Shown in pieces: positions 4,749-59,444 of a DNA stretch of 64,000 bases (position 1 is its first letter; every line of letters begins with the position of its first letter). The position numbers and the translations under genes are program-made. The notes beneath the pieces were generated by a model. That model saw nothing but the letters and a program-made list of their open reading frames with translations. It ran no database searches and was not told the DNA's origin. Source of the DNA: Orobanche coerulescens (taxonomy: Eukaryota; Streptophyta; Magnoliopsida; Lamiales; Orobanchaceae); the NCBI GenBank assembly GCA_033398695.1, contig CM065819.1:5009501-5073500 (forward strand), given 5' to 3'.

Positions 4749-4964
4749 TAGCGTACGCTACATACTCTACGTAACGTGCGCTAAGCCTGCCCGTTAGCAT
4801 ACGTAAACGACGAAGTCTAGCGTACGCTAACTTATGTACCGGCAGTCCTCTCTGACCAGCCAACTGAATCGGCTGATGACATAACGTACGTTACGTACCA
4901 AACGTAGCGTACGTTATTCATTCCCGATAGCGCACGTGAATATATACATCTTAGCATGCGCTAC
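4749..4964. repeat. A1 LTR downstream palindrome cluster
   Basis: About seven copies of TAGCGTACGCTA (a perfect 12-bp palindrome) or close variants such as TAACGTACGTTA. They lie downstream of the TATA box in the transcribed part of the LTR. A2 has the matching cluster at 40805-41019. Confidence 0.85.
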
Positions 4965-5686: not shown

Positions 5687-5993
5687 TAGCGCACACTAGT
5701 CCATATTCATAGCGTGCGCTAACGGCTATACGAAACTTACTAATTTCACTGTACTCAGCGTTTAGCGTGCGCTATCCTCATATCATTAGCGTGCGCTACC
5801 GCGTTGACTTGGCTTTTCCCGAAAGCCATCCAGGTTCATCCCGACATAATCCGACCAAGATCTGCGGCCTGATCTCACCTACCAACATGTCTCAATCATG
5901 CTGACTACGTATAGCGCGCGCTAAGGTTCATATATATCATGCGCTACTAAATCCAAATTAGCGTACGCTACGCCTAGTCGATAGCGTGCACTA
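5687..5993. repeat. A1 LTR U3 palindrome array (TAGCGYACGCTA)
   Basis: Repeated copies of the 12-bp palindrome TAGCGTACGCTA and one- or two-base variants (TAGCGTGCGCTA, TAGCGCGCGCTA) lie immediately upstream of the TATA box in minus-strand sense. The array ends within 150 bp of the LTR start. Confidence 0.88.
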
Positions 5994-14903: not shown

Positions 14904-14907
14904 ACTC

Positions 14908-17559
14908 TGTAACACCCCAAACCAGGCGGATATTACAAAGGTCAGTGGACCCCGACCGGGACCCACCAAAGCGAATGAAAAAGGATGAATTACACAGGGT
15001 AAATGTAGTACCGAACCACATTATAACATCAATTACTCCGATTAGGAGTTTCATACAACACACCCAGGATAATATAGAATACTTGTGTATCTTATGTGAC
15101 GATAAAATACACGACACTGAATGAAATGAGTATTCGAAAGTAATGTCTGCAGCGGAATAATAAAGAAAACATAAATGACTGAATAAATGACTGAAAGGAT
15201 TGGGGCCCCCTTCTAGTATCACTGGGACTCTCCGCCGTCAACGTGCTCTCCCTGCGCCTTTGCCTTGCCATGACCTGAAAAACAATATCCCCAAACGGGG
15301 TCAGTTATACAGAACAACAATCCTCAAGGGTTGAAAATACACAATCATGATATATCTGAAATTATGAATTATCCTGTCGAACATACGCAATCAAACATGC
15401 TATATGAATCGACTATCAGTACGGCTCAAAGGAATGGCGCCACACTACGTCCGGGATGGAAATGTGTCCGTGCACAAGCCACCAACGATCAAACACGCGT
15501 GGTCTTGTACCTAATCAGTCTCACGAGCAATCGACTCGTGTGCACAGTCCAATGTGAGGCCAACAACCAACACACGACCATAATGTGCCCGACATGAAAA
15601 TCCTACACATACCAACTGCACGCCAAGATGACCCGAATGCCACAATATGACAAAAGTGTCAACGATAATGAATAATGACTCAACTATATTTTTTGATGGT
15701 GAAATGAATTTTAGCTCTTTGAAATGATCGGAACCGCTGCTCCTTATGACTGAGGTGATTAATTGACAATGACGAGTTTTGATACGATTAATACAATGAT
15801 GAATGAGTTATGATTATGAATGAACAACGACAAAAGGAATGAATATCCTTTTAACCGAGTAAGAATTAACTTACTCAATACCGATGATGAATGTCCGTCC
15901 ACGAACAACGTCCTAACCAAGATACCGGTCGCTCGAACAACCTTAATTCAATACAATTACCAACAATCCGATCAATAACGAATTAAACACGAACATAACG
16001 AACTCAAGTCGTCGATACGATTAAACCAAGTTCATAGGGGCATTATATCGAACACTTTGAGGCCAACTTCGATTGATTACAACTAAACCTCAACAATACC
16101 AATCTCAAATCCCCAAGAAGTGCTTCAAATCAATAAAACATCTCCAATACGATCAATAGTCCGTTAAGAATATCCAAAAACGTGATTATAACAACTATTA
16201 ATCGGAAATCCCCAAATCCAACTCGATATTCAAAGTGTTCTAGAATAAATCCCTCAAAAATCCAATGAATCCTTATACAAACTCATAATCATATACATAT
16301 CCCTTCATAAAACATGATTATAACGTCAAACATCATATCTCAACACAAAATCGAAATCCAAGGTGTTGAAGAAATTACCTCTTGAAGATCTAACCACTTC
16401 GATCCGATGAACACGAGTTATAACGAGTACCCAAGCTTCCCAAAGGAATGAAGATGATGAAGATTACACACTCAAGTGATTGATGATGATAAAAACTCTC
16501 TCTCAACCCTCTCTCGGATGAAGAAGGAAAAAATGAAAAAGTGAAGTGAAATGACCCGGCCAAGTCATTAAATCTGCCGGTTACGGCCGTAACTCGGCCC
16601 TCTTACGGCCGTAACTTTCCAAGTCAACGGCCTTACGGCCGAATCGCCAACTCAGACGGCCGTAACTCGGCCGTCAAAGCTCCGGCTGACACTTTACGGC
16701 CAGAATCGATCTGAGTTACGGCGTAACCCGCCTTCGTCAAAAACATCCGTCGACACCCTTACGGCCGTAACCGCACACCTTACGGCCGTAACTCGGATGA
16801 TACGGCCGTATCCGGCCAAATCTTACGGGCGTAAGCCCTCTTCGCCGTCAGCGGCCGGGCACCACCGCTGCCAGACGGCCAGAATCGGCCAACTCGTACG
16901 GCCGTACCTGCCTCGACTAACGGCCGTATGCCGCAACCCTTACGGCCGTAAGTCACCCTTGGTCAACAACACCCAAAACTTACGAACACCACTTACGGCC
17001 GTATCTCACCATCCTTACGGCCGTAACTCACCTTCGGCCGAAAATGTCTCGGTAGCTCGCCTTTGACGCCAGACGTCAGAATCGCCAGCCTTACGTGCAC
17101 CGCTCAACTTACGGCCGTACCACAGACCTTACGGCCGTAAGTCCTTTCGTCCAAATGGCTCGAAACACGAACCCAAGTTACGGCCGTAACCCAAAGTCCT
17201 TACTGCCGTAACTCGATGCTGGCCAAGTTGAAAATTCCGATAACTCCGATTCCACGATACGACTGATGAATGATCCGACATAACATACGAATGTGAAAAT
17301 GAACAAGTCTAACACAAGCCACGGATGATGCTCCCAGTACGACTACCAAACACGATGAAAATAATAATACTCCCGTCGATCTCTAAACGGAGATGACATG
17401 ACGATCGGTAACTGATATACGATTACAACATGCCAACATTGAACACAAATGAGTGATTCATGAATGATGAGTGATTATTAATGAGTGAGAATTACTGAGT
17501 GACAATTACAGACTGATAATTACTGAATGAAAATGAATGAATTACAACCGGGTATTACA
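14908..17559 (-). repeat. B 5' LTR
   Basis: 2652-bp partner of 7069-9705, with TGTAACACCCC and GGTATTACA ends (plus-strand order). The right end abuts the second AAGAC copy. Confidence 0.95.
16581..17211. repeat. B 5' LTR palindrome array (TTACGGCCGTAA)
   Basis: Copy of the array at 8736-9366 with the same layout. Several units differ between the two LTRs by small indels, so this part of the LTR changes faster than its surroundings. Confidence 0.88.
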
Positions 17560-21635: not shown

Positions 21636-21782
21636 GGCTTGGGTTTCTTCATTTTCACCCTTCACACATCCTTGCATCCTTAGCGGAAACTCTGCAGATT
21701 TTTCCGGAGCTTCTTGTGCCGACCGTCTTCCTTTCTTTAGGTAAGAAAAATCAATCTTCTTTCTCCCTTTACTTTTTATAAA

Positions 21783-30979: not shown

Positions 30980-31093
30980 TTTTCTGAAGGTTTTTCTATT
31001 GAAAAACAGTGAGTGTTTCTTCAAGTATATGTCCGGAGAACAGTGAGTGTTCTTCGAGACAGTAGGAATAAAAATGAAGGTTTAGAACCCCTT

Positions 31094-31107
31094 CCTCTAG
31101 CACCAAT
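31094..31107 (-). other. F primer binding site (tRNA not assigned)
   Basis: Next to the 5' LTR the minus strand reads ATTGGTGCTAGAGGAAGGGG. This form is common in Tat-lineage elements and is not initiator-Met. I cannot name the tRNA from sequence alone. Confidence 0.6.
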
Positions 31108-32032: not shown

Positions 32033-32737
32033 GATAACAATGATACAACAAATGATTAAGCACCTTGATTGCTTTAGAACGGCTAATCGATGACAATGAT
32101 ACAATGAATGATTGAGCACATCGATTGCCTTAGAACGGCTAAACGATGACAATGATACAATGAATGATTGAGCACCTCGATTGCCTTAGAACGGCTAATC
32201 GATGACAATGATACAATGAATGATTGAGCACCTCGATTGCCTTAGAACGGCTAATCGATGACAATGATACAATGAGTGATTGAGCACCTCGATTGCCTTA
32301 GAACGGCTAATCGATGAAAATGAGACAATGAATGATTGAACTCCTCCATTTCCTTAAAATGGCTAATCGATGACAATGATACAATGAATGCCTCGGCACC
32401 TTTAATCGGCTACCGACAATGAAGATGAGAACGAATACGACAATGCCTTCAATTGGCCAATACAACATGAATGACAGGATGCCAACATTAATAACAATGA
32501 TTACAACAACGTCTAGATCGACATAAATATTAACAACAACAACCGATACATCGATACCGCGAACCGGTGATCGATAATAACATTAACCACGAATATCTCA
32601 ATGCCTTACCGGCCATTAATGAATGATAATAAACATGTGGCATAATTGCCGAAGAGTATCGTATCGAACGATCCCCTAATATCAATGAACTTATGAAGAG
32701 ACTAAGTCTCACAATGATACAACACATTCATTCATAC
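32033..32737 (-). repeat. C left LTR, piece 2, with F target duplication and 56-bp repeats
   Basis: Begins with the second GATAA copy (32033-32037) and continues the C LTR. About six tandem units of 56 bp (32041-32392) contain GAATGATTGAGCACCTCGAT and CGGCTAATCGATGACAATGA. Counterparts are 49640-49890 and 54720-55060. It ends with CATAC (32733-32737), the target duplication of D. Confidence 0.9.
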
Positions 32738-35652: not shown

Positions 35653-36234
35653 CATACACATATATGATAACATTAATCTCATTGACTAGTACAAGTATAA
35701 AACTTGCCTCAACCGAAGGCGATGAATTCCTTCCACGAACAACGAACGGCGTCCTCCGATAAACACAAGTACTCGAACAACCTTGAATGAAATACAATTC
35801 ATTCAATAACACAATATCAATCGAAATCAACACAACGACCGAAAGAAACTCTTTGAGACATTTAATCGAACACTAAATGTTCAAAGTTCCTCAAGAACCT
35901 AAGAATCATCAATCGGGTTGAACGAATCGAAGATATGGATATACAATCCATAGAACAGGATTAATAATGTTCACTAACATCAACCGATTCATGAAATTCG
36001 GACGAACAATGAAAATCAAGAAGAAATCTCGAAAAATCAAATTCTAGGAGATTTCAAGAAATTACCTCGATCCGACGAAGAACAATGATTTGATGTTGAT
36101 ATAATCGATAAGAACCCTCAAAAATGCTTAGAAATCGACTGGAATTGACCAAAAACTCCATTTACCAATTTTTCCCGTCGCCAGCCGCAACCGGGTGAAG
36201 AAATGATGAAAAAATGAGGTCTGGCCGGTTACTG

Positions 36235-36242
36235 CCTATATA
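36235..36242 (-). promoter_or_regulatory. C left LTR TATA box
   Basis: The minus strand reads TATATAGG. The palindrome TTACGGTCGTAA (36255-36266) is exactly 12 bp upstream. Confidence 0.7.
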
Positions 36243-36254
36243 TGGCCGGCAGGG

Positions 36255-36509
36255 TTACGGTCGTAACCGGCATTCATCTAAACCCGCATAGCACCTGCCG
36301 ATCGCTTACGGCCGTAACCGACAGGGCCTTACGGCCGTAACTCGGCATTTACGATCGTACCCGACAGGTCCATACGGCCATAACCGGCATTCGTCCGAAC
36401 ACTGTCTGGCACCCGTACGGCCATAACTGACAGCCCTTACGGTCGTAACCGGCATTCGGCCGAACACTGCCGATCACGTATAGCCGTAACTGGCACCTTA
36501 CGGCCGTAA
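36255..36509. repeat. C left LTR palindrome array (TTACGGCCGTAA)
   Basis: About nine copies or near copies at 20-40-bp intervals, for example TTACGGCCGTAA at 36498-36509. Confidence 0.87.
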
Positions 36510-37849
36510 CTCGGCCAGGCCAGGCCGTGCTCCAAGAAGTGCGGCCGTGACTCGGCCGTGGCCACTCCGACGGCCCAGACGACGCCGAAACCCGAACCTG
36601 AATATGAATCAAAGATATGGTTACGAAGTACTCGCAAAGACGAATCGAAGCGCTAAGAGAACACACGATTTCGACCACTCGAAGGCTCGAAATTCCACAA
36701 CGGAAAGTAATTACCCCAAACTTTGGGAAATTACGAAAATGGCCCAAAACGTCCTAAATACACGATACACGATCGAAACACCAAGACAAAGCTCGCAACA
36801 TGAATAATAACATTAAATGAACTTACGAGAAACTCGAAACGATAGTTTCGGACGAGATTCGAAAGAATCGAACTCAAGTGCGGAAAAGCTGCTTAAGAAC
36901 ACGGAAGTCAACAAAACGATATCGAAACGAACTCGGATGACAAAAAGTGCAGAATTAAATATTCTCGAAATGACGAAACGGTCACAAAGGAGTCGCTAAG
37001 ATGGACTTCCACCAAAAAAAGAAAATTACCGGAAAATCGAAATTGCGGATATTACATACTACCCCCCTTAGAGGAAGTTTCGCCCCGAAACTTAAAACAA
37101 GTAGGGAGAAGCAATATCCCGCCAGGAAAAATCAACGAGATACACACGAAAATGAATGATCACAATGAATGATAATGAATCGAAATCCAAGAAGGATCAA
37201 GAATGACTCACCGGGGTGAAATGATAACGTAATGAGTGATAGCTCAAATGAAATGATTGGAACCATTGTTCCCGGTGAAATGAATGATTAGTTTGATAAT
37301 TATAAGTCTCAACGTGATTGACATATGATGAATGAATTATACGAATGAATGAACGACGATGAAATGAATGATTATCCTATTACCGAGCAAGAATTAACTT
37401 GCTCAAAACCGGTGAGGAATGTCCTATTGTATCACAGTTAAAGCAAACAACAGTCAAACTCGTCGTCTGAGATGAAGATGCTCTCCAGCATGAAGACGAC
37501 TAGAAAACGATCTCTTGGACCTCGGAGTCCGATGTCCCTCTGACAGCTCTTTCCATACCAAGGCAGGAAAGTCACGTGATAATTACAGATCTCGTATGAA
37601 GATCGCATTATGATTACGAGATGGAATGACAACAATGAGCATACACGCACTAACACAATGATTACATTAATAATGCAATAAAATGATCGTCGACATGATG
37701 CCGGAATATGATAAGATCGCATGAAAGATCAAGTGAGGTGACATGACTATCTGATGAAATTCCTGAAATGATTACTTTGAACAAGTTAACAAGGTTGAAA
37801 ATTTGATCCACAAGATCAACAACTGAACCGTGAGATGGACTGGATGATT

Positions 37850-38160
37850 AATGAATTAACTGAACAATGAGATTGACTGAGTGATGAATGAATTAACTGA
37901 GCGATGAGATTGACTGATTGATGAATGAATTAACTATGCGATGAGATTGACTAAGTGATGAATGAATTAACTGAACAATGAGATTAACTGAGTGATGAAT
38001 GAATTAACTCAACAATGAGATTGACTGAGTGATGAATGAATTAACTGAACAATGATATTAATTGAATGATGAATGAATTAACTGAACGATGAGATTGACT
38101 GAGTGATGAATGAATTAACTGAACAATGAGATTAACTGGAGTGATGAATGAATTAACATG
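37850..38160. repeat. 37-bp tandem repeats in C internal region 1
   Basis: About eight units of TGATGAATGAATTAACTGAA followed by CAATGAGATTGACTGAG. The same array stands at 52360-52710 in internal region 2. Confidence 0.9.
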
Positions 38161-38555
38161 ATTGACAAGATCAAAATGATGATTGAGGATTATTAACTGA
38201 TGAATGAGTTGATCCTTAGCACTTACACAAGTCACACATGCTCCAAAATAATTAGTTATGAATCAATCATAACACTAATATCACATACAGGTTTCAACAA
38301 AGCATGAATAATTAATGACATGATGAATATATGAACATAAAGAGAATCGAGTCCTTACACATGTCATACGAAGCTTCGAAGTCTCACGATACTAGTCTTT
38401 ACTGACGACGATTCGATGAATGAATGACTCGTGTAGTCGTACAAATTTCACGACTCACAAAACCCGACTGTCCAGATTGTCATAACCTGACAGTCCCACT
38501 ACTACCGCGTCGATATAGCCACATAACTCACATATCAGGGTATCTCACAATCCAA

Positions 38556-38568
38556 TTCTCTGATACCA
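38556..38568 (-). other. C primer binding site 1 (tRNA-iMet)
   Basis: The minus strand reads TGGTATCAGAGAA, 5 bp inside the LTR end at 38574. Confidence 0.88.
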
Positions 38569-38573
38569 TCTTT

Positions 38574-39675
38574 TGTAACACCCCCAAATCCTATTGGGTT
38601 TTTACAGTGCCGTGGACCCCATGCCAGGAGATCCACCAGGCGAACATGACTAAAATACATTAAATTAAACAACAAGGGAAATCCATAGTCCCTATCATGA
38701 TATCCGACACAATATTCCGATAAGTAATTTCAACGACAACGATGGGCCTACATGGCCCAAAATAAAATACAACAACATCCACGAGCATCTACTCGGGTAA
38801 TACATAATGACAATGACTGACAAACTGAAGAACACTCCAATTGATTGACCAACATGAACAACTCAGACTAGTATCGCTCGAATGCCTCGTCGCCATCATC
38901 ATGCCCCTGTGTCTCAACTCTCTCCTCGCAAGCACCTAAAACATGAAAACATATTCCGCCCCCACGGGGTCAGTCATCCAGATAATGAACATCAAATACA
39001 TGTATAACATGATATGCATCCAAAGGCATAATGAAACGGTACAATGATAATAATAATACGAGATGCTCACAAACCAATGTAAGAACCGAGCATTCGTGAA
39101 ACACTATGCCCACGGCAAACTATTAATACCTGTTCGACAGGTTAGAATATAAATGCCAAACAGCGAATCATAATTAAAGAGTACCACGATGAATTACACG
39201 ACATGAATATGAATCACAATGCCCGAAGGCTCCAATGATATTACCAAGACAATTACAAAGGCCTGAAAGCCACTAAGCTGAAGCTGTCAAATATCACAAT
39301 CACATGAAGCCAAAACAGCCCGAAGCTGTATCGATTAGGGCCGAAGCCACAACACGAAGCCGTATCACAATTAGGGCCGAAGCCACGGCATGAAGCCGTA
39401 TCACAATTAGGGCCGAAGCCACGGCACGAAGCTGTATCACAATTAGGGCCGAAGCCACTGCACGAAGCCGTATCACAATTAGAGCCGAAACCACGGCACG
39501 AAGCCGTATCAAAATGAAACCATCCAATGGTCGTTGACCTACTGAGCTGTAGGTGTTGGGGGAAACAACCGCGAAGGTTCATGCCACACCAAACTTACCC
39601 CTTAATGAAACCATCCAATGGCCGTTGACCTACTGAGTTGTAGGTGTTGGGAAACAACCTCCAAGGTTCAGGCCC
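38574..39675 (-). repeat. C middle LTR, piece 1
   Basis: Begins TGTAACACCCCCAAATCC and runs through the 36-bp array (39330-39517) into the 90-bp array, where A2 is inserted. GGCCC at 39671-39675 would be the A2 target site. Confidence 0.9.
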
Positions 39676-39828
39676 TGTAATACCCGAGATTTCTGATATG
39701 TTTTTGGAACTAGTGATATTGTAATTATTGTACTTTTGTCTGAGTATTATTTCTCCGTTTTTCATAATCCGATGTTGTCGAGCGTATGATTTCATGATTG
39801 TGATTTAAAAATTGTAATTCTGCGCATG

Positions 39829-40122
39829 TAGCGCACGCTATCGGCTATGTGTAGCGTACGCTAACATGGATCCATAGCGCACGCTACAAAGGAACATTAG
39901 CGCACGCTATGCGTGGTCAATTTGATTGAGACGTGTGGTAGGTGAGATCAGGCCGGGGATCTTGGTCGGATTGTGTCGGGATGAACCTGGACGGCTTTCG
40001 GGAAAAGCCAAGTCAACGCCTTAGCGCACGCTATAGGTATGTGCATAGCGCACGCTAAGTCTTGAAATCTGATGAAGTCGCAGCCGTTAGCGCACGCTAC
40101 GAGCAGGGACTAGCGCGCGATA
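39829..40122. repeat. A2 5' LTR U3 palindrome array
   Basis: Eight copies of TAGCGYACGCTA or a one- to two-base variant start at 39829, 39852, 39875, 39898, 40022, 40046, 40088 and 40111. The first four are spaced 23 bp apart. Confidence 0.92.
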
Positions 40123-40134
40123 ATAACCATTTCC

Positions 40135-40144
40135 TATAAATAGG
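40135..40144 (+). promoter_or_regulatory. A2 5' LTR TATA box
   Basis: TATAAATAGG, 12 bp after the last palindrome of the U3 array. It should drive the genomic RNA. Confidence 0.78.
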
Positions 40145-40804
40145 ACAGCATCCTTTTCGTATTTTCAGTCCTTTCTTTTCCCACATCCGAATTCTTATAC
40201 TTAGAGTATAACTTCCTACATCCTAAACACTTCATATCAGCATCCTAGCTTGTATTGAAGATTGTAAATCATTGAGGATTGGTGTTCGAGCCTTCGATTT
40301 TCTCCTTGTTCTTCACTAATTTGAGGTAGGTGGTTCTTCACCAATATTAGTAGTGTTTTAAAGGACGTTTGATCATGTTTTAATAGTCGGTTATTTCGTT
40401 CAAAATCGATCATCATGTGTTAGAAGGATATTTTCGACGTTTCGGCACTTATTCATCGTATGAACCTTTGAACCTTTTTAGTTTATGGACTCCTAAGCAT
40501 TTCAAACCGATTTGTGATCAGTATATGGAGATTTTCAAGTTCTTATGCGTTTATATAGAAGGATCATACGTTTTGAGACTTATAACGGATTGAACTCAGG
40601 ATATCCCTTGAAGATCTAGATGAACTATGGTGTTGTGATGATTATACGTATCTTTGTATCTCATAGTCATTTAGTACGTAAAGAACTTTCACAAACCTTA
40701 TTAGCATGATATGCTCGGGGATGACTTGTTTTATCACCATAGAATTCATGAGTTCATAACCGTTAGATCCAGTTTTCTACTGGTAGTAATCTGCCATGCA
40801 CGGT

Positions 40805-41019
40805 TAGCGCACGCTAACATACGTAAGTTAACGTGCGCTATCGGGGATAAGTTAACGCACGCTATGTTTAGTACGTAACGTACGTTACGATATCAGCCGA
40901 GTTAGTCGGCTGATCAGAGAGAACTGTCAGCCTATGGCTAGCGTACGCTAGGCTTAGACAATAGCGTACGCTAACAGGCAGGCTTAGCGCACGCTACGTA
41001 GAGTACGTAGCGTACGCTA
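40805..41019. repeat. A2 5' LTR downstream palindrome cluster
   Basis: Eight units including TAGCGCACGCTA (40805), the perfect palindrome TAACGTACGTTA, and four TAGCGTACGCTA-type copies near 40939-41019. They lie within the transcribed part and would be paired hairpins in RNA. Confidence 0.88.
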
Positions 41020-42001
41020 AGTGGTTCAGGCAGACTGCATATTTTGAGCTTTTGGGCCGTAGACCAAATTGTTAGGCAATCGTTCGACTTGAGATGATTT
41101 GTATATCATTTCTTTTGTTAAGGTTCGAGCTTGCTACGTTGATCGAAGGAGGCAGCATTCGAGTGTGTTGAGATCATTGAAGTGTTTCGTTCTTTCCATC
41201 TTTGAGGCAAGTATCGTAATGTGTTAAAATTGATATTTTGAGTATGTTTGTGGTTTATTCATGTTGTTGAACATGGAAATTAATTTGTTGAATTGTCATG
41301 ATATTCGTTATCTAGTGTTTGTATGTTCATGTTGATGAACATAATGATTTGGCATATGTGTATGCATGAGTTGTATTTGTGTACGTTGTACGATCTATGC
41401 TGAGGGCGCTGGATCGGATGTCCACCTCATGTTGGTCCGACGGGATCATCTTGGGATCTAGGGTGAGGGCGCTGGATCATTGGACGGGTTATTTCCACCT
41501 CGTGTTGGTCCGACGGGATCATCTTGGGATCTATGCTGAGGGCGCTGGATCATTGGAATACCCTTGCTGTGTTAATGGAATCTTGTGTATCTTGTTATGT
41601 ATTGTTGATGCATATTTGAATTGTTTAATATGATACTTGTACTAGAATCGTTTTGCTAACCCCTTCGGGGGTGGACATTTGTTTTGATGTTCAGGTAGCC
41701 GAGGAGCAGGGAAATAGCCACAGTACCGACGTGACGACGAAGGGGTTCAGTGATGTTTGTTGTTGTTGGTGATTTGTTTTCTTGTTTGATTTCAGTACTC
41801 GAGTACGCGTGTCGTATTAATATCATTTCGATATGGTTGTATTAATTACTCGTTGAACCAGTTGAATGGTTTTGTAAACTTGAATTTCCGCAGTATTGAT
41901 GTCTTATATTTACATTTCTTTTAAAATCAGCCTTGTAAATCCTTACTTAAAGGGTTTACGGCCCTGTAATTATTCCGAATATCTCGGGGTGTTACAGAAT
42001 A

Positions 42002-42241: not shown

Positions 42242-43375
42242 ATGTTGAGAGGAGGACGTGGACGCGGACGTGGTCGTGGACGCGGACGCGGTCGTGGACG
42301 CGGATGGGGTAACATGAGACAGGAGGATTCCGCAACTACCCCGGAATTATCAGCTAGTCGAACCGATTCCCATTTTGGAGGGCAGCAAGGGTCAGCGAAT
42401 GACGACGCAAATCCTAACATGCCGGGAGTGCTTCAACACGTGGTGGCGCAGATAAACCAGTTCGCCTAGGTAGTCGACCGCATGCAGACGGCGATGGGAC
42501 AGCAGCACCACGAGGATAACCGGGGAGACAGATGGCTTGCTGAGGTGGTCAAATTGCACCCGCCAAAATTTGACGGATCTGCTGAGGCAATTACTTGGGA
42601 TCACTGGCTCAAGGAGTTAGAGAAGATATTCGCGGGTCTTAACTATCCCGAGGACCGGAAGGTTCCCATTGCCCAGTATTTTTTGACTGGGAGGCCTTTG
42701 ATTGGTGGGAAGCTATTCGACCCGAGAATCATAATGCGGATTGGACGGAATTCAAATTAATGATGGAAGCACATTATTGTCCTCGTCCAGTTAGAGAGGC
42801 AAAGATCCGAGAGTTTTTCTCACCACCGAGTTCGGAAGCATCTGTGACAGATGTAATCAAAACTTTTAATCATCAGCTGACTTGTGTGCGACACTTGGTC
42901 AGAACGGAGGCAGAAAAGATTTTTCATTTCGATATGCGGATGAAGTCGGAGATTCAGCAGTACATGTCCGGGTTCGAGTGTACTACGTTGTGACAGTATC
43001 AAGACAAAGCGCTGGCCTACGACATGAAAGAGGCGGCGGTGGAGAAATCAGTGGAGGCAAAGAAGCAGAAGGTGACCGGCAACTTTTCAGAAAACAAGAG
43101 TGGTGGACCCCGCAAGGGCAGGTCTTCCTTTTATTCGGCTAGAAACCTCCACATCCTTCCGTAGGTGGAAAGAAGTTCGGACTACATCGGCGATTCGGAC
43201 GCATCAAAGAAATGCTACAATTGTGGTCTAGCAGGCATATTCGACGTGATCGCCCCGCATCTTCGTGACTTGCTACGATTGTGGACAAGAAGGACACCGT
43301 GCGGCTATCTGAGGATTTGCTACTATGTCTTATCGTACTCGCACACCAGCGCCAGTTCCAAAGGAGATAAGTGTG
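42242..43375 (+). pseudogene. gag: A2 gag (two stops, frameshifts)
   Basis: ATG 42242 opens an Arg/Gly repeat tail (MLRGGRGRGRGRGRGRG). An in-frame TAG at about 42468 replaces CAG (QFAQVV). The frame continues from 42482 through KLHPPKFDGSAEAITWDHWL to a frameshift near 42690 and resumes at 42760 (MMEAHYCPRPVREAKIREFF). A TGA near 42991 replaces CGA (TTLRQYQ). Zinc knuckles follow in different frames (CYNCGLAG at about 43213; [12 protein letters not shown] at about 43272). The gene cannot make full-length Gag. Confidence 0.86.
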
Positions 43376-46300
43376 AACCAGACACAACAGAGTTGATTTC
43401 CGCAGCAGAACGTAGGGAAGAGAGAGACATCGAGTCCGGGTCCGTTCCTCCGTGCACATGCGAGATGAGGAAATCTGGCGATCAGAACACTGCTGTTACA
43501 TCAGGTACGATTCAGATCCTTTTGCAACCAGTTAGTGTTTTATTCGATTCCGGAGCTACACATTCCTTTGTATCCTTGAACTGTGTAAATCGTTTAAAAA
43601 TCTCGTGCTTATTTGATTGTGAACCATATGTTGTGGGTTTGCCGGGTGGAGAGAGAATTGTGGGAACCCTAGAGGCTAGAAATTTTCCAGTGTCTATAGG
43701 AGAGAGAGATTGGCCATCGAATCTTATTGTAGTTGACATCTACGGTGATGATTTAATTCTCGGAGACGATTGGCTCAACCGTTATGGAGCTATTCTGAAT
43801 TACCGAGAGAGAGTCATTTCTATCATTGCTGATGACGGATCTGAACACTTATTTCGAGGGTGGAGACCGGGAAGCTCAGGAAAATTGATCAAAGCAATGA
43901 AAGCCGTGAAATTACTGAAGCAAGGATGTCATGGACTTTGGTGTTATGCCATGAGGAAAGAGGAAGGAGTAGAGCTCTCGTCTATTGCAGTTGTGAATGA
44001 GTTCTCAGATGTATTTCCTGACGAACTACCTGGGTTACCTCGGCAGAGAGAAGTGGAATTCACTAATGAATTAGAGCCTGGAGCAGCTCCTATTTCCAGA
44101 GCACCATACCGCACGGCGCCAACCGAGATGTATGAACTCAAGAAGCAACTGGAGGAATTGTTACAGAAGGGCTATATTCAACCTAGCGTTTCTCCTTGGG
44201 GAGCGCCCGTTCTCTTTGTCCGGAAGAAAGACGGATCCCTCCGACTGTGTATTGATTACAGGGAGCTCAATAAGATGACGATCAAGAATAAGTATCCTAT
44301 ACCTCGGATCGATGACTTGTTTGATCAACTGCAAGGGGCAAGGGTATTCTCGAAGATTGACTTGCGATCAGGATACCATCAGTTGAGGATTAAGGAATCG
44401 GATATACCAAAGTCTGCTTTCAGGTCCCGGTACGGGCATTATGAATTCGTAGTGATGCCGTTTGGACTTACCAATGCTCCTGCGGTATTCATGCAATTGA
44501 TGAATCGGGTATTCTTGGAATACTTGGATAAAATTGTGGTCGTCTTCATTGATGACATCTTGATATATTCGAAGGACGCAGAGGAGCATGCCGAACATTT
44601 GCATGTGGTTTTGAGCACCTTGAGGAAGGAACAGCTGTATGCAAAGCTTTCAAAATGCGAGTTCTGGCTCAGGGAGGTAACTTTCCTTGGGCATGTGATA
44701 TCAGCCGACGGAGTTCAGGTGGACCCAAAGAAAGTCGAAGCAATTTTGGAATGGGAAGCCCCTAATAACGTGAAAGAAGTCCGGAGTTTCTTAGGACTTG
44801 CTGGATATTATTGCCGCTTTGTAGAGGGATTTTCCAAAATTGCTCGTCCGCTCACTCAGCTGTTACAGAAAACTCAAAAGTTCAAGTGGGATGAGAAATG
44901 GCAGGCTAGTTTTGATGAACTTAAGAAGAGACTGATGACAGCACCTATATTAGCATTACCAGATGGAACTGATGGATTCATGGTGTACAGCGACGCTTCA
45001 AATCGGGGTCTGGGATGTGTGTTGATGCAAAGAGATAAGGTGATTGCCTATGCTTCTCGGCAGTTGAAACCATACGAGGTTAATTACCCGACTCATGATC
45101 TGGAGCTAGCAGTTGTAGTCTTTGCTTTGAAAATTTGGAGACATTATTTGTACGGAACTCATTGTCAGATCTTTACCGATCATAAGAGCCTCAAGTACAT
45201 TTTCAGTCAGAAAGAATTAAACATGAGGCAGAGAAGGTGGCTGGAATTGATCAAGGATTACGACTTGGAGATTCTCTATCATCCGGGGAAAGCAAACGTA
45301 GTAGCCGATGCATTGAGTCGTAAACCTGTTTCTCTTCGAGTGTTGGAAGCACTTACATCCCAAACCAGTATTCAACGGGAACTGATCCGCGAGGGGATTG
45401 AAGTATGGGCACCAGGAATCCAAGGGCAACTTTATGTGATGGAACTGACTTCATCACTAGTCGAGGAGATCAAGTCTAAGCAGTTGAACGATTCTCTGAT
45501 CCTTCGATTATGTGACGAAGTAAAGAAAGGAAAAGCCCCAGGATTCGTGATACAAGACGATGGAGTTCTGAGATTTCAGAGTCGACTTTGCGTTCCCGAT
45601 GATGATGATTTGAGACGGACTATTCTGAAGGAAGCTCACAGCGCGCCCTATTCCATTCACCCGGGCAGCAGTAAGATGTATAAGGATTTAAAACAAAACT
45701 TCTGGTGGGGGAATATGAAGAAGGACGTAGCAGAGTACGTTTCGAGGTGCTTGACTTGTCAGCAAGTTAAGATTGAACATCAGCGACCCGCCGGAATGTT
45801 AAAGCCGCTTCCGATCCCTGAATGGAAGTGGGAGGACATCTCGATGGATTTCATCACCAGTATGCCAAGGACTAGAACGGGAATGAACATGATTTGGGTT
45901 GTAGTTGATCGACTAACCAAGTCGGCTCATTTCCTAGGGATTAAAGATACATGGGGGCCCGAGAGATTGGCGCGAGTATTTATTGCGGAGATAGTCAGAT
46001 TGCATGGGATGCCGAAGACCATTATTTCAGATCGAGATGGTCGTTTCGTGTTGCACTTATGGAAAGCAGTTCACAGGGCTCTGGGGACTGATCTCAACTT
46101 TAGCACGGCTTATCGTCCCCAAACGGACGGTCAGTCCGAAAGGACTATACAGACAGTAGAGGACATGCTTAGAGCCTGTGCTTTTGATTGGTCAACTGAT
46201 TGGGAAGTTCATCTGCCATTGATTGAATTCACTTACAATAATAGTTGGCATGCTTCTATTAAGATGGCACCATTTGAAGCTTTGTACGGGAGAAGATGCC

Positions 46301-46971
46301 GATCACCCCTGTGTTGGGATGATTCTTCGGATTTGATCGGGACGGAACCGGAATTGATAATTCAGACTCAAGAGAAGATAACTTTGATTCGAGAAAGACT
46401 GTTGACTGCCCAGAGTCGACAGAAGTCTTATGCAGACGTACGTCGTCGCCCTCTAGAGTTCAACGCTAGAGACCATGTACTATTGAAGGTGTCTCCTACA
46501 CGAGGGATTTTCCGTTTTGGGAGGAGAGGCAAGCTTAGTCCTAGATATATCGGACCATTCGAGATCCTCGAGAGGGTTGGGGATTTAGCATACAGGTTGG
46601 CCTTACCGTCATCGCTGAGTCACGTTCACAATGTGTTTCACGTATCCCAATTGCGGAAGTATGTACCGGACCCCAGTCACGTCATTGAATTCGACGAGAT
46701 CGAGATAGCTAATGATGGCACCTTCGAAGAGAGACCAATCAAGATACTTGAGAGTCGGATCAAACAATTGAGGAATAAACCAATACATTTGGTTAAAGTA
46801 CAATGGTCGCGACACGGAGTTGAAGAGGCCACTTGGGAAACGGAGGACAGTATGAAGACTAGATATCCGGAGTTGTTTTCATCTTATGTTTCGGGACGAA
46901 ACTCCTTTTGGGGGAGGAAGGATGTAATACCCGAGATTTCTGATATGTTTTTGGAACTTGTGATATTGTAA
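43165..46971 (+). CDS. pol: A2 pol polyprotein (protease-RT-RNase H-integrase-chromodomain), open
   Basis: 1268 codons without a stop. The first ~95 residues overlap the damaged gag tail and are probably not natural. Protease: FDSGATHSF, residues 127-135. RT about 335-515 with KIDL (Asp399) and FIDD (461-464). RNase H about 600-720 with YSDAS (Asp610), Glu648, TDHKS (Asp672), VADALS (Asp715). Integrase zinc residues His825, His832, Cys862, Cys865; core Asp895 (SMDF), Asp956 (SDRDGRF), Glu992, giving the usual D,D35E spacing. Chromodomain about 1180-1240 ([15 protein letters not shown]). All catalytic residues are present. The frame runs through the polypurine tract and ends 49 bp inside the 3' LTR. 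Without Gag the copy could act only with help; expression is not shown. Confidence 0.93.
46910..46922 (+). other. A2 polypurine tract
   Basis: GGGGGAGGAAGGA immediately before the 3' LTR, within the pol frame, preceded by TTTCGGGACGAAACTCC. Confidence 0.9.
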
Positions 46972-47075
46972 TTATTGTACTTTTGTCTGAGTATTATTTC
47001 TCCGTATTTCATAATCCGATGTTGTCGAGCGTATGATTTCATGATTGTGATTTAAAAATTGTAATTCTGCGCATG

Positions 47076-47369
47076 TAGCACACGCTATCGGCTATGTGTA
47101 GCGTACGCTAACATGGATCCATAGCGCACGCTACAAAGGAACATTAGTGCACGCTATGCGTGGTCAATTTGATTGAGACGTGTGGTAGGTGAGATCAGGC
47201 TGGGGATCTTGGTCGGATTATGTCGGGATGAACCTGGACGGCTTTCGGGAAATGCCAAGTCAACGCCTTAGCGCACGCTACAGGTATGTGCATAGCGCAC
47301 GCTAAGTGCTGAGTATAGTGAAGTTAGTAGCCGTTATCGCACGCTACGAGCAGGGACTAGCGCGCGCTA
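47076..47369. repeat. A2 3' LTR U3 palindrome array
   Basis: Partner of 39829-40122. Its last copy, TAGCGCGCGCTA (47358-47369), is a perfect palindrome and again lies 12 bp before the TATA box. Confidence 0.9.
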
Positions 47370-47381
47370 ATAACCATTTCC

Positions 47382-47391
47382 TATAAATAGG
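47382..47391 (+). promoter_or_regulatory. A2 3' LTR TATA box
   Basis: TATAAATAGG, 12 bp after the last palindrome. If active it would transcribe outward into family C. Confidence 0.7.
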
Positions 47392-50300
47392 ACAGTATCC
47401 TTTTCGTATTTTCAGTCCTTTCTTTTCCCACATCCGAATTCTTATACTTAGAGTATAACTTCCTACATCCTAAACACTTCATATCCGCATCCTAGCTTGT
47501 ATTGAAGATTGTAAATCAGTGAGGATTGGTGTTCGAGCCTTCGACGTTGGATTGCTTCGATTTTCTCCTTGTTCTTCACTACTTTGAGGTAGGTGGTTCT
47601 TCACCAATATTAGTAGTGTTCTAAAGGACGTTTGATCATGTTTTAAAAGTCGGTTATTTCGTTCAAAATCGATCATCATGTGTTAGAAGGATATTTTCGA
47701 CGTTTCGGCACTTATTCATCGTATGAACCTTTGAACCTTTTTAGTTTATGGACTCCTAAGCATTTTCAAACCGATTTGGGATCAGTATATGGAGATTTTC
47801 AAGTTCTTATGCGTTTATATTGAAGGATCATACGTTTTGAGACTTATAACGGATTGAACTCAGGATATCCCTTGAAGATCTAGATGAACTATGGTGTTGT
47901 GATGATTATACGTATATTTGTATCTCATAGTCATTTAGTACCTAAAGAACTTTCACAAACCTTAATAGCATGATATGCTCGGGGATGACTTGTTTTATCA
48001 CCATAGAATTCATGAGTTCATCACCGTTAGATCCAGTTTTCTACCGGTAGTAATCTGCCATGCACGGTTAGCGCACGCTAACATACGTAAGTTAACGTGC
48101 GCTATCGGGGATAAGTTAACGCACGCTACGTTTAGTACGTAACGTACATTACGATATCAGCCGAGTCAGTCGGCTGATCAGAGAGAACTGTCAGCCTATG
48201 GCTAGCGTACGCTAGGCTTAGACGATAGCGTACGCTACGTAGAGTACGTAGCGTACGCTAAGTGGTTCAGGCAGACTGCATATATTGAGCTTTTGGGCCA
48301 TAGACCAAATTGTTAGGCGATCGTTCGACTTGAGATGAGTTATATATCATTTCTTTTGTTAAGGTTCGAGCTTGCTACATTGATTGAAGGAGGCAGCCTT
48401 CGAGTGTGTTGAGATCATTGAAGTGTTTCGTTCTTGCCATCTTCGAGGCAAGTATCGTAATGTGTTAAAATTGATATTTTGAGTATGTTTGTGGTTTATT
48501 CATGTTGTTGAACATGGAAATTAATTTGTTGAATTGTCATGATATTCGTTATCTAGTGTTTGTATGTTCATGTTGATGAACATAATGATTTGGCATATGT
48601 GTATGCATGAGTTGTATTTGTGTACGTTGTACGATCTATGCTGAGGGCGCTGGATCGGATGTCCACCTCGTGTTGGTCCGACGGGATCATCTTGGGATCT
48701 AGCCGAGGTCGCTGGATCATTGGACGGGTTATTTCCACCTCGTGTTGGTCCGACGGGATCATCTTGGGATCTATGCTGAGGGCGCTGGATCATTGGAATA
48801 CCCTTGCTGTGTTAATGGAATCTTGTGGATTCGCATTGTCAGATTCCGGTAGCGGAAGTCCGTGTGGTGTATCTTGTTATGTATTCTTGATGCATATTCG
48901 AATTGTTTAATATGATACTTGTACTAGCATCGTTTTGCTAACCCCTTCGGGGGTGGACATTTGTTTTGATGTTCAGGTAGCCGAGGAAGCGAGAAAGCGA
49001 CCACGACCGACGTGACGACGAAGGGGTTCAGTGATGTTTGTTGTTGTTGGTGATTTGTTTTCTTGTTTGATTTCAGTACTCGAGTACGCGTGTCGTATTA
49101 ATATCATTTCGATATGGTTGTATTAATTACTCGTTGAACCAGTTGAATGGTTTTGTAAACTTGAATTTCCGCAGTATTGATGTCTTATATTTACATTTCT
49201 TTTAAAATCAGCCTTGTAAATCCTTACTTAAAGGGTTTACGGCCCTGTAATTATTCCGAATATCTCGGGGGAAACAACCGCGAAGGTTCGGGCCCCACGA
49301 AACTTACCCCATAATGAGCGCTAGCCGAGACTAGCCTCCAAACATAATTAATCACAAACAGAAACGATTCCAAGATTACAGAATTCACGAGAATGACAGT
49401 GTGTTGCCTTGAGTCGGCCAACACGACAACAATGACTCACGGATGGGTACCGTCCTTGGCGGTCCCAATTCAATACATCGATTACCTTAGAATGGTCAAT
49501 CGATAACAACGACATAACGGATGGGAACTATCCTTGACAGCCCCAATTCAATACCTCGATTGCCTTAGAATGGTCAACCGATAATAATGATGCAGCGGAT
49601 CATTCAATATTTCGATTGCCTTAAAACGGCCAATCGATAACAATGATACAACGAATGATTGAGCACCTCGATTGCTTTAGAACGACTAATCGATGACAAT
49701 GATACAATGAATGATTGAGCACCTCGATTGCCTTAGAACGGCTAATCGATGACAATGATACAATGAATGATTGAGCACCTCGATTGGCATACAACGGCTA
49801 ATCGATGACAATGATACAATGAATGATTGAACTCCTCGATTGCCTTAGAACGGCTAATCGATGACAATGATACAATGAATGCCTCGGCACCTTTAATCGG
49901 CTACCGACGACGAAAATGAAAACGAATACGAAAATTGCTTCAATTGGCCAATACAACGTGAATGACAGGACGCCAACATTAATAACAATGATTACAACAA
50001 CGTCTAGATCGACATCAATATTAACAACAACAACCGATACATCGATACCACGAACCGGTGATCGATAATAACATTAACACCGAATATCTCAATGCCTTAC
50101 CGACCATTAATGAATGATAATAAACATTTAGCATAATTGCCGAAGAGTATCATATCGAACGATCCCCTAATATCAATGAACTTATGAAGAGCCTAAGTCT
50201 CGGAATGATACAACACATTCATACACATATATGATAACATTAATCTCATTGACTAGTACAAGTATAAAACGTGCCTCAACCGAAGGCAATGAATTCCTTC

Positions 50301-50799: not shown

Positions 50800-50807
50800 C
50801 CTATATA
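50800..50807 (-). promoter_or_regulatory. C middle LTR TATA box
   Basis: The minus strand reads TATATAGG; the palindrome TTACGGTCGTAA (50820-50831) is 12 bp upstream. Confidence 0.7.
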
Positions 50808-50819
50808 TGGCCGGCAGGG

Positions 50820-56259: not shown

Positions 56260-56714
56260 TAGTGCACGCTAATATTCAAGCATAGTGCCCGCTATCGTGC
56301 AGGTTTAGAGCACGCTAAAGGCAAAGGATAGCGCATGCTAGTGCAGAACAGATCAGAGGAAATCTACATGTGGACCCGTCTACTTTCGGCGTATGTTCCA
56401 AGGTCAACGGATGTTTGTTATAAAGGATTAGCGCACGCTAATGCATATTGTTAGCGCACGCTAATATCAGATCGGTCTAAAGGGAATCTTATCCTTGTCA
56501 GATGCTTTCGGCGTGTGGACCCATCTTCGGAGCATACAGACAAACGAGTCAACTATGAGTAGCGCACGCTATGGTCGGACACTTGCGTACGCTAAATAGA
56601 GGCATTTACGTATGCTATTACATGGGCATTGCGTACATAAATCATTATACGAAGCTAGGTAGTAGCTTATGGACTGCGATTGCGCACGCTATTTTGTGAA
56701 AGTAGCGCACGCTA
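56260..56714. repeat. E LTR U3 palindrome array
   Basis: About a dozen copies of TAGCGCACGCTA and decayed variants (TAGTGCACGCTA, TAGCGCATGCTA). Confidence 0.83.
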
Positions 56715-56735: not shown

Positions 56736-59444
56736 ATTGAAGATGTGAATTATGTTCATTCGGCCATTCCTTCCCTTATTTCGATAGAGAGAGTTCTTAG
56801 AGAGAAGTTTGGGGTTCCAAACACTGAGAGATGATCGTTCTTAACAATATTAAGATGGAGAGCATGGATTAAAGCCTTGTTCTTGAAGATTATTGATGAT
56901 TCTTGGAATGGAGTTTGATTGTTCTTCTTCATGGTTCGTCTACAAGGTAATTTTCGTATCCCATTGTTAGTGTTCATTTTTAAAGGATGATTACCTGGGA
57001 GGGAATATGTTGGATTATCATGTGAGGGTGTTATAATAGTTTTAATAGATATATAAATGACTTGGATTATGAATCGGATGATTATTTACATGTTAAAGGA
57101 TATCGGATTATGTTGTTTTGATGACTATGAACATGGTTTCGAATCACTTGGTGTTCTTGAAGAGCTTATTGATGAATATACCATAGCAAGACGATTGTAT
57201 GTTGAATTATCAGTATTTTAGATATGAAGATGAAAGGTTCATATCTAGGATTAAGTCATGTTGATTGATGATTGATTAATGGTATATATCATGTGAGTAT
57301 GATAACGAGATTGAATATGGAAAGATTATGATTGATCTTGGAGTATGATTTCCTTTACATTCGTATACGCAATCACCATATGTTGATCGGTACCTATAAT
57401 GCCTGCAACTGCATGTCATTAGCGCACACTAGTGTTACTGGCTAGCGCACGCTAACTGAAGCAACTTAGCGCACGCTATGTTAAATGATTAACATGCGCT
57501 ATGTCAACAGGCAGTGTAGTATATCGTGTTGTGGTTATGAATTCATGCGGGTTTGAGTTGGATTGTTCAAACTATGTTTAACCGAGATATTGTGGAACCG
57601 TTGAGTTTGATTTATTGGTTATATTGGGAATTGATTATTATCGAATGTGTGTTAATCGATTATTGCAATAGGTTGTGATAATTGATCATTGATAAGAACA
57701 GTGTGTTGCGGTCGTGTTCGAGTATGTTCGTGAATTGCATTGGTCAGGATCGAGGAGCTCATAGACAAAGGCAATGAGATTGGTAGCGGCTTCATCATCG
57801 TCGTATCGGTATCGAGGCAAGTTATTACTGGCACAGTTTATAATATTTAATGAATGGTTTCGATTTCATTCGTTTATAATTTGTATAGCAATGATTATAA
57901 TTGTGAACACAGGAGATTTGTGCTTGTAGATTGTTTTCAGATTTTGAGAATTTAAATCATAATGTATATGATTTACTTTTGTTATTGGTATACTTGGGTA
58001 TCGAGGATACATTGTGTTATAGCCGAAGACATGAATTATCTACCGCCCGTGACAGTTTGGACCGTCGAATATTGAGGATTATTATTGTTGATGGTTTTGA
58101 CATCTAGATTGCTCTCGAAGGACTCGGGGCAAGTAATATATCATTTTTGTCATTTTGTGTCGATCATGTTGCGATGCATTTGTGTATTGTTGTTTTCGTG
58201 CATTGTGTATTGTTGTTTTGTGCAGTTGTGCATTGTTGTCATATGTCCAGCATGCGGTGGTCCGACGGGATCATTATGGGAATCTATAGTTGTGTGTGCT
58301 AGATCGCTGGACAGGTATTTCCACCATGCGTTGGTCCGATGGGATCATCATGGGAATCTATAGTTGTGTGCACTGGATCGTTGGATTACCATGTGTTGTT
58401 GTTGTGCATACGTATATTATAGGTTATCCATGAGTATACATTGTTATAATTGATGTGAGCATATTGACGTTGTCATATGAGTATGCATTTGTAGGTCATG
58501 CGTTAGGACCATGTCCGTATTGTGTATTGATCTGATCTCGGATTAGACTGACATGATTGTCGTGGTATTGTGCATCTCGAGGTATGTTCCGTATTTCCTT
58601 TGGTAATTTGTTTTTGATGGACAATCGATTATCGTGTTGAGATGTGATGAGGTTACCCGATGGATTGGGTTGGACAGAGTTAGTAGATTTCATAACAGTG
58701 AGTTATGATAATGTTTTGAGAACCTTGGGTATTGTTGAGATACAATATAGATATTTCGGTATGAGCTTATTGCGTTGTTGAAAGGATACGAGATGTGAAC
58801 TTTGGTAATTATTATCACGAGTTGGTAAAGTTATGGCGGTAAGATTACATTGGTCGTATTATTACTTAGTACTATCATTAGTATGTAATTATTGATGTGA
58901 TGTGATCGTTATCATTGTTGGGTATTATGGCTGACCCCGTCGTGGGATTTCTTTTTAGATTCTTGGGTATTGAGCTTGTAGCGATCATGAAGAGAAGAGC
59001 TTCCCGGAGGATACTGGCTAGGGCATGTATTTGTATATTGAGTTTCCTTCTCAGTTGTGTATTCTGCTGCTAGAGTATTTTTAACTGTTGTCTTTTCCGC
59101 TGCGTGAGTATTTTTGAATGACATTTCGTTATCTGGTATCTTAAGTTACTTTGGATAGGGTTTTCTAAACTATTTTGTCGGTACGTGTAAGCGATAGCTT
59201 AACGTATGCTTTTAAATTGTTGAGTTATGACATTGTAGGCCTTGTCCTTTCAAATGAGATGTTACGACGGTTTTGTTAAACGAATATTTTTATAAGTCTT
59301 CGAATGTTTCTAAAAGATAGTACCGTCATTAGCCTCTTGGGCGTTCGTAAATTTTTGCAAAAATGTCTTTCAGCCTTGTGGGTTCCGTCTCGGGGCCCAT
59401 GACGCTGTAATATTCCCGGTCGAATCTCGGGGTGTTATAGAATA

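What the first reader, a model, noticed from the sequence alone, without database searches (positions are those of the whole stretch)
39829..40144. Palindrome array at a fixed 12 bp from the TATA box in A-family LTRs
A2 5' LTR has eight TAGCGYACGCTA-type 12-bp palindromes in about 300 bp, the last ending exactly 12 bp before TATAAATAGG. The same 12-bp gap occurs in the A2 3' LTR (47358-47369 to 47382) and in A1 (5687 to 5674 on the minus strand). Several other positions have decayed while this spacing has not. A binding site for a dimeric transcription factor one helical turn from the TATA box is a plausible inference; cruciform or RNA hairpin function is another.
Basis: partly seen in the sequence, partly recalled or inferred. 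Interest (0 to 1): 0.85.

Follow-up and report, generated by a model that had tools for sequence, protein, structure and literature searches.

The report
Palindrome-array promoters in plant retrotransposons
Many different jumping elements in this large plant-like genome carry the same short palindrome in ordered rows that usually end 11-12 bases before a TATA box, which looks like a landing pad for one unidentified paired DNA-binding protein that would control them together.

Summary
The A2 5' LTR has eight TAGCG-YR-CGCTA palindromes at the stated places, the last 12 bp before TATAAATA; the 3' LTR and A1 match.

Genome-wide (3.65 Gb, species unnamed) the exact palindrome occurs 1,309,842 times, against 108 for the reversed string. 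Of 49,753 matches with TATAWATA within 30 bp, about 41,540 (83%) have a gap of 11-12. Neighbours typically lie 23-24 bp apart, in runs of four and two. Distances between runs show a ~10.5-bp period, also in a random sample, less clearly in two listings. Four LTR groups with unalignable flanks share the array; carriers include chromoviruses, coding-poor derivatives and a Ty1/copia element. A second palindrome, TTACGGCCGTAA, takes the same place in family C.

Arms are conserved between families while spacers approach saturation. Compensatory arm changes are not in excess. A1, A2 and A3 upstream RNA folds no better than shuffles; seven other LTRs fold better.

Best reading: an array of binding sites for a homodimeric, probably host-encoded, factor acting in fixed register on the LTR core promoter. 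No protein, binding or transcription was shown. Sirevirus LTR palindromes are closest: a new variant of a known kind.

The parts
39676..41989 (+). A2 5' LTR (chromovirus; 93.9% identical to its 3' LTR)
   Evidence: self-BLAST; pol domains
39829..39909 (+). A2 upstream array, run of four palindromes (starts 39829, 39852, 39875, 39898; steps 23,23,23)
40022..40057 (+). A2 upstream array, pair (40022, 40046; step 24)
40088..40122 (+). A2 upstream array, TATA-proximal pair (40088, 40111; step 23); starts at -47 and -24 from the TATA box
40135..40142 (+). TATAAATA, 12 bp after the last palindrome; pyrimidine-rich Inr-like stretch roughly 27-45 bp downstream of its start
40805..41019 (+). second array downstream of the TATA box, two runs of four (+670,+694,+718,+741 and +804,+827,+850,+873)
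46923..49270 (+). A2 3' LTR
47076..47369 (+). A2 3' LTR upstream array of eight palindromes; TATA from 47382, gap 12
48069..48260 (+). A2 3' LTR downstream array (seven sites, one with 3 mismatches)
5687..5993 (-). A1 upstream array of eight palindromes; TATATATA on the minus strand from 5674, gap 12
4749..4963 (-). A1 downstream array of eight sites, one with 3 mismatches
56260..56714 (+). A3 upstream array (runs of 4, 2, 3 and 2 sites, one with 3 mismatches); TATATATAT from 56726, gap 11; flanks not alignable to A1/A2 by BLAST
57420..57501 (+). A3 downstream array (four sites)
16581..17211 (-). B-family LTR array of TTACGGCCGTAA-type palindromes (many 20-23-bp steps); no canonical TATA after it; the other LTR has a similar array at 8736-9366
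36237..36550 (-). C-family array of TTACGGCCGTAA-type palindromes; the first (36255-36266, one mismatch) lies 12 bp before TATATA (36242-36237, minus strand), i.e. also at -24; the same offset in the C copy at 50802-50831, 3 bp more in the copy at 55991-56023 where that site has 3 mismatches
43165..46971 (+). A2 pol frame: protease, RT, RNase H, integrase zinc-binding, SH3, weak chromodomain; the only frame of 150 aa or more listed between the A2 LTRs

Best explanation
The palindromes are binding sites of a homodimeric sequence-specific DNA-binding protein with half-site TARCG. The two halves are separated by a flexible pyrimidine-purine step. The sites form an ordered enhancer and promoter-proximal array in the LTR. 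The last pair sits at about -47/-24 from the TATA box, so that bound protein contacts the basal machinery in a fixed register. Further runs of four upstream (and, in some families, downstream of the start) add occupancy, with neighbouring runs in preferred helical phase. The factor is probably made by the host, because chromoviruses, coding-poor derivatives and a Ty1/copia element share the same site. Shown here: the sites, their conserved arms, spacings and TATA register, across flanks that no longer align. Inferred: that a protein binds, that it is dimeric, host-encoded and activating.
For: Enrichment: 1,309,842 vs 108; paired sites with 0-30 bp between them 471,302 vs 0. TATA gap 11-12 in about 41,540 of 49,753, with 60 distinct gap sequences among 100 listed, 50 of them 11-12 long. 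Second-last site at -48 to -44 in 25 of 26 LTRs though the search did not ask for it. Palindrome downstream of TATAAATA only 3,558 (not like for like, TATAAATA alone). Step 23-24 in 131 of 167 neighbour pairs and 63 of 75 in random loci. Inter-run distances: 10.5 the best period of 5-16 bp, R=0.58, n=82, 38 distinct values p=0.006; random loci at 10.5 R=0.57, same phase, n=37, p=5e-6, 24 distinct values p=0.009. Arms vs non-CpG spacers between copies or families OR 0.25 (p=9e-31), within elements OR 0.74 (p=0.12); MK-type p=0.009. Centre YR in 60 of 60 random sites. Ty1/copia carrier. No clear compensatory excess.
Against: No protein, binding or expression data. The 23.3-bp step is not a whole number of helical turns. 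The MK-type contrast weakens to p=0.09 if CpG spacers are counted. In the exact-site listing helical phasing fails on distinct values (p=0.19) and 9.1 bp fits best; in the TTACGGCCGTAA listing 10.9 bp fits best. The Ty1/copia gap is 17. Family B has no canonical TATA at that spot. One arm-perfect site with a non-YR centre was seen. Shared descent or LTR exchange makes copies non-independent. The TATA-anchored copies examined in detail were my picks from the first ~12 Mb of one contig, found by an exact palindrome near TATA.
Confidence: 0.7

Rival explanations
1. The sites are bound by a protein, but one that represses or marks the LTR (a host silencing factor or chromatin organiser), or an anti-silencing factor, rather than a classical activator.
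For: Conservation shows only that element lineages keep the sites while active. CpGs in arms differ less between the two LTRs of an element (18 of 433) than CpGs in spacers (67 of 491), which could reflect protein occupancy or low methylation.
Against: Elements would be expected to lose sites that silence them. Register with the TATA box fits promoter activation better. The CpG contrast may come from how copies were picked.
Confidence: 0.12
2. Shared descent or repeated exchange of one LTR promoter segment, with no active selection on spacing: the layout is inherited and indels are rare.
For: 16 of 24 LTRs compared link, many of them weakly, in one flank cluster. Acquisition of an LTR segment by the Gypsy family RLG_Quinta, with a homologue in the Copia family RLC_Gisela, is proposed for einkorn (PMC11302176, passages).
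Against: In the big group spacers differ at 51% and have 16% gap columns while arms differ at 15%. Inter-run lengths vary from 40 to 127 bp but with a ~10.5-bp period. A different palindrome occupies the -24 position in C.
Confidence: 0.1
3. RNA hairpins: palindromes pair with each other in read-through U3 transcripts and feed small-RNA production, as proposed for maize Sireviruses.
For: Of 11 U3 stretches folded (40 shuffles each), six have z of -3.49 or lower (L005, L007, L010, L013, L014, L017) and L001, of the A flank group, has -2.79, with palindromes mostly pairing with one another. Bousios 2016 as reported in PMC10760457 (passages).
Against: A1, both A2 LTRs and A3 have z of -0.38 to -1.52. 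Single palindromes fold weakly or not at all. There is no clear compensatory excess. Neither the TATA register nor a 10.5-bp DNA period is expected.
Confidence: 0.05
4. Cruciform or other DNA secondary structure at short palindromes.
For: Dyad symmetry near a TATA box.
Against: Most exact sites have a CA or TG centre that breaks the symmetry (158 of 210). A 12-bp palindrome is very short for extrusion (recalled). No clear compensatory excess.
Confidence: 0.03

Closest known systems
Sirevirus (Ty1/copia) LTR repeated motifs (RM boxes), Bousios et al. 2010, PMC2829016 (abstract, passages and section 9 seen)
   Same: Many copies of one short palindrome in the upstream half of the LTR, before a TATA box, with CpG; the motif differs between families; TTACGGCCGTAA even shares the CGG-CCG core.
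   Different: Described there as Sirevirus-specific, with a CGG-CCG core in all but one element. [quoted passage not shown] no fixed register is described in what I saw. Here Ty3/gypsy chromoviruses carry a GCG-YR-CGC core, a mostly 11-12-bp TATA gap, 23-24-bp steps and a 10.5-bp period between runs.
Maize Sirevirus palindrome-rich cis-region with small-RNA excess (Bousios et al. 2016, not held; seen through PMC10760457 passages)
   Same: Palindrome clusters in the LTR regulatory region.
   Different: The role discussed there is through RNA secondary structure; here A1, A2 and A3 upstream RNA folds no better than shuffles and DNA spacing is conserved.
Tnt1 BII boxes and ONSEN heat-responsive element (PMC3316501 and PMC3907296, passages); Tto1 13-bp motif (title in a reference list only)
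   Same: LTR-borne sites for host DNA-binding factors in plant retrotransposons (HSFA2 binding by EMSA for ONSEN).
   Different: As far as seen, single families; no genome-wide ordered array shared by many families and two superfamilies.

Membership tests
Sirevirus RM-box array | Carrier is a Ty1/copia Sirevirus | tested here: not met
   A2 has Ty3/gypsy-type pol with RVT_1, Integrase_H2C2, SH3_Tf2-1 and a sub-threshold Chromo match; one carrier (L005/L066) is Ty1/copia, Sirevirus status not tested
Sirevirus RM-box array | CGG-CCG core | tested here: not met
   A palindrome core is GCG-YR-CGC; the B/C palindrome TTACGGCCGTAA does have CGG-CCG
Sirevirus RM-box array | Several copies of one palindrome in the LTR upstream of a TATA box (at least eight copies per element in PMC2829016) | tested here: met
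   eight in A2 and up to 17 in other LTRs; some LTRs hold only 5-7
Sirevirus RM-box array | Additional copies in the linker upstream of an env-like gene (only in env-bearing Sireviruses) | tested here: not met
   between the A2 LTRs the listing of sites with up to 3 mismatches shows only one 2-mismatch site, at 45639
Dimeric transcription-factor site array | Two-fold symmetric site, arms conserved, spacing constrained | tested here: met
Dimeric transcription-factor site array | A protein binds the site | not testable with these tools
   no binding data held
Chromovirus (Ty3/gypsy) | Gypsy pol order with C-terminal chromodomain | tested here: met
   protease, RT, RNase H, H2C2, SH3_Tf2-1; Chromo E=2.2e-4 at the C-terminus, 21.5 bits, below its cut-off of 25.1

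The most novel reading that the evidence does not exclude
One dimeric host factor (or a small paralogue family with half-sites TARCG and TTACG) reads a common promoter code in this genome. The code is used by chromoviruses, their coding-poor derivatives and Ty1/copia elements. With about 1.3 million exact sites (0.4% of all DNA) it may form a genome-wide retrotransposon regulon and a huge sink for that factor.
Probability: 0.3. Interest if true: 0.88.

Novelty: new variant of a known kind. Interest (0 to 1): 0.74.

Why it matters
How high-copy retrotransposons are switched on in large plant genomes is mostly known from single families (recalled). A shared, ordered site array next to the TATA box in many families would mean that one regulator controls much of a genome's mobile DNA. 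It gives a short, exact probe sequence with which to fish out that protein. It also offers tens of thousands of natural promoter variants (gap, phase, site number, palindrome type) for reading out promoter grammar.

Tried and rejected
Element-encoded regulator: no other frame of 150 aa or more was listed between the A2 LTRs (shorter or spliced genes not excluded), and Ty3/gypsy and Ty1/copia carriers share the site, so a host factor is preferred; this is not proven. Recent tandem duplication as the cause of the spacing: sequences between palindromes look unrelated within an array while palindromes are nearly identical (by eye). Compensatory evolution: not supported. Palindrome type following pol phylogeny: doubtful. 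In the longest pieces B pol is closer to A2 (RT 72%, RNase H 75%, integrase 81%, SH3 77%) than L063 is (47%, 59%, 57%, 84 and 52% in two pieces), SH3 apart, yet B has TTACGGCCGTAA and the L063 element TAGCG-type sites; in the protease piece B is not closer (43-49% vs 53%). Virus carriers: an IMG/VR scan found one pair in a single contig. It is an isolated pair in GC-rich, phage-like sequence with no array in the 577 bases read; a chance or operator look-alike, not followed further. Literature for the exact strings: six hits, all in papers on unrelated subjects by title. No listed paper looked like a report of this TATA-register array, but only titles and starts of abstracts were seen, and 24, 48, 86 and 88 listed 15 of 196, 15 of 26, 12 of 37 and 10 of 28. 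The species was not identified.

Not obtained: the TATA-gap distribution for TTACGGCCGTAA (did not complete).

Full report
WHAT IS THERE. A2 is a chromovirus. Its 5' LTR spans 39676-41989 and its 3' LTR 46923-49270, 93.9% identical. Its pol frame carries protease, RT, RNase H, integrase zinc-binding and SH3 domains and a weak chromodomain match. The eight palindromes and the 12-bp gap stand as reported. The window has 61 sites with up to two mismatches where shuffles give 3.05. A1, A2 and A3 also have a second array about 700 bp downstream of the TATA box, as do L004 and L009. The other loci show none in that listing, but their fetched stretches reach only about 0.2 to 1.7 kb past the TATA box, so several could not have shown one.

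GENOME SCALE. Exact TAGCGYRCGCTA: 1,309,842 places; the string read backwards: 108. TTACGGCCGTAA: 184,551 against 83. Two palindromes with 0-30 bp between them: 471,302 against 0. In 200 kb of stretches at arbitrary coordinates (20 x 10 kb) there are 60 TAGCGNNCGCTA sites and all 60 have a YR centre. An unsupervised look there for palindrome arms that recur at 14-32 bp ranks TAGCG first (19 neighbour pairs) and TACGG second (7; TTACG 3); a 16-bp-period repeat with other arms follows (up to 4).

TATA REGISTER. Palindrome, 0-30 bp, TATAWATA: 24,033 + 25,720, control 1 + 1. With the gap limited to 11-12: 20,696 + 20,844, control 0, i.e. about 83%. Among the first 100 listed, 31 have gap 11 and 59 have gap 12. 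The rest are 7, 8, 9 (two), 10 (two) and 17 (four). These 100 hold 60 distinct gap sequences, 50 of them 11-12 long. After loose clustering 9 of 15 clusters have 11-12, against 2 of 31 possible lengths (p=7e-8). With the palindrome on the other side of TATAAATA there are 1,804 + 1,754 places (TATAAATA only, so not like for like). Many of the 100 listed there (not counted) read, on the other strand, as palindrome, 12-13 bp, TATTTATA.

THE GRID. I picked 20 loci with varied gap sequences from that listing and looked at them with A1, A2, A3 and three further elements (26 LTRs). The last site starts at -24 to -21 and the one before at -48 to -44 in 25 of 26; L005 has -29 and -54. The last site was asked for by the search, the other was not. 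L014 shows runs of four at -437..-367, -302..-233 and -169..-100 before the pair; L010, L017, L018 and L053 are similar, others keep fewer sites or another arrangement. Neighbour steps of 30 bp or less: 131 of 167 are 23-24 bp; in the random stretches 63 of 75. Longer distances cluster near 43, 53, 64, 75, 107 and 125. Scanning periods from 5 to 16 bp, 10.5 fits best (R=0.58, n=82; 38 distinct values p=0.006). In the random stretches, fixed at 10.5, R=0.57 with the same phase (n=37, p=5e-6; 24 distinct values p=0.009; best period 10.3). For TTACGGCCGTAA places from the listing a test at the predicted phase gives p=0.0025 (n=24; 17 distinct values p=0.027), with 10.9 bp fitting best. For exact A sites from the listing it gives p=0.004 (n=38), but p=0.19 on 25 distinct values, and 9.1 bp fits that set best. 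Copies share descent, so the p-values are optimistic.

UNRELATED FLANKS. With palindromes masked, 24 LTRs fall into four groups that BLAST cannot connect: {A1, both A2 LTRs, L001, L004}, {A3, L009}, {L005} and 16 others, some linked only weakly. L005 is the 3' end of a Ty1/copia element. The adjoining upstream stretch L066 encodes RVT_2 (E=1.2e-73), Pol_BBD and gag_pre-integrase domains. L005 itself opens with frames that look like the end of a Ty1/copia RNase H (recognised from memory, no Pfam hit), then come a run of four, a pair and a TATA box (gap 17). The L063 element has chromovirus pol pieces. L061 and L062 gave no pol similarity. C in the window (minus strand) has TTACGGTCGTAA at -24, 12 bp from TATATA; B has the palindromes but no canonical TATA there.

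SELECTION. Comparing two LTRs of 11 elements (10 pairs assumed from adjacent same-strand hits, plus A2): arms differ at 39 of 1080 sites, non-CpG spacers at 142 of 2949, CpG spacers at 67 of 491. Comparing seven disjoint pairs of different copies or families: arms 74 of 785, non-CpG spacers 483 of 1643. The odds ratio goes from 0.74 (not significant) to 0.25. The MK-type contrast has p=0.009 with non-CpG spacers and 0.09 with all spacers; a bootstrap over pairs with all spacers gives 0.009. Gap columns and sites with more than three mismatches were dropped, and nine of the 20 picked loci were not used in the seven pairs. So arms appear to be held while elements are active and to drift later. 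Centres change more than arms: 325 of 1001 against 734 of 5027 in the big group, yet among arm-perfect array sites they stay YR with one exception seen. CpGs in arms differ less than CpGs in spacers even within elements (18 of 433 vs 67 of 491, p=3e-7). This could mean occupancy or low methylation, or selection of intact copies by my search.

STRUCTURE OR PROTEIN. Of 36 arm-only two-mismatch sites, 6 are complementary, 4.5 expected: no clear excess. RNA folding of the upstream region of 11 LTRs, 40 shuffles each: z of -0.38 to -1.52 for A1, A2 (two LTRs) and A3, and -2.79 to -6.36 for the seven others (L001 of the A flank group, L005, L007, L010, L013, L014, L017), with palindromes mostly pairing with one another. 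Hairpins are thus possible in many families but not general. The TATA register and a 10.5-bp period between runs are features of double-stranded DNA seen by proteins. A pyrimidine-rich, often TCA-containing stretch roughly 27-45 bp after the TATA box fits a start site there; no transcript was examined.

MECHANISM. I take the array as binding sites for a homodimer that contacts the core promoter from a fixed place. Half-site TARCG is inferred from the commonest arm variants (G3 to A and C10 to T, 42 of 105 one-mismatch sites). That the protein comes from the host is inferred from shared use by Ty3/gypsy and Ty1/copia elements and by coding-poor elements. Exchange of LTR segments could also spread it (PMC11302176, passages).

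KNOWN RELATIVES. Sirevirus repeated motifs are the nearest kind (PMC2829016, passages and section 9). They too are palindromes in the upstream LTR half before a TATA box, but are described as Sirevirus-specific, mostly with a CGG-CCG core, and no fixed register is described in what I saw. Later maize work ties such palindromes to secondary structure and small RNAs (seen through PMC10760457 passages). Tnt1 and ONSEN show LTR sites for host factors (PMC3316501 and PMC3907296 passages). I saw no report of this register or spacing in the listings of searches of an open-licence library; several of those listings were capped.

Noticed in passing
31943-32734, 35653-39675, 49267-56193: Family C occurs in several near copies about 5 kb apart (A2 left out) with inner 56-bp and 37-bp tandem repeats, and A2 is inserted in one of them; its palindrome is TTACGGCCGTAA on the minus strand.
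   Followed up: partly
7062-9705 and 14901-17559: Family B, LTRs 95% identical, element on the minus strand, has RT, RNase H, integrase and SH3 pieces 72-81% like A2 in their longest matches but a different palindrome, so the palindrome type switched or was exchanged between relatives.
   Followed up: partly
L064:212-1567: About 60 bp after the TATA box of a palindrome promoter (gap 17) begins an open stretch of 452 codons with a weak match to PF20167 (putative plant transposon protein, 43.3 bits, cut-off 45).
   Followed up: no
L065:2-985: Protein kinase gene fragment about 0.75 kb upstream of Ty1/copia coding sequence.
   Followed up: no
L067:12696-12730: An IMG/VR contig with GC-rich phage-like sequence holds one pair of the same palindrome with 11 bp between the sites; likely coincidence or an operator.
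   Followed up: partly
LTR pairs L041-L060 and the two A2 LTRs (39676-41989, 46923-49270): CpGs inside palindromes differ less between two LTRs of an element than CpGs in spacers (18 of 433 vs 67 of 491), which is unexplained.
   Followed up: partly
20421-32032: Another LTR element with 925-bp LTRs (97.6% identical) and pol pieces only about 24-37% like A2; no TAGCG-type site with up to 3 mismatches in its LTRs.
   Followed up: no
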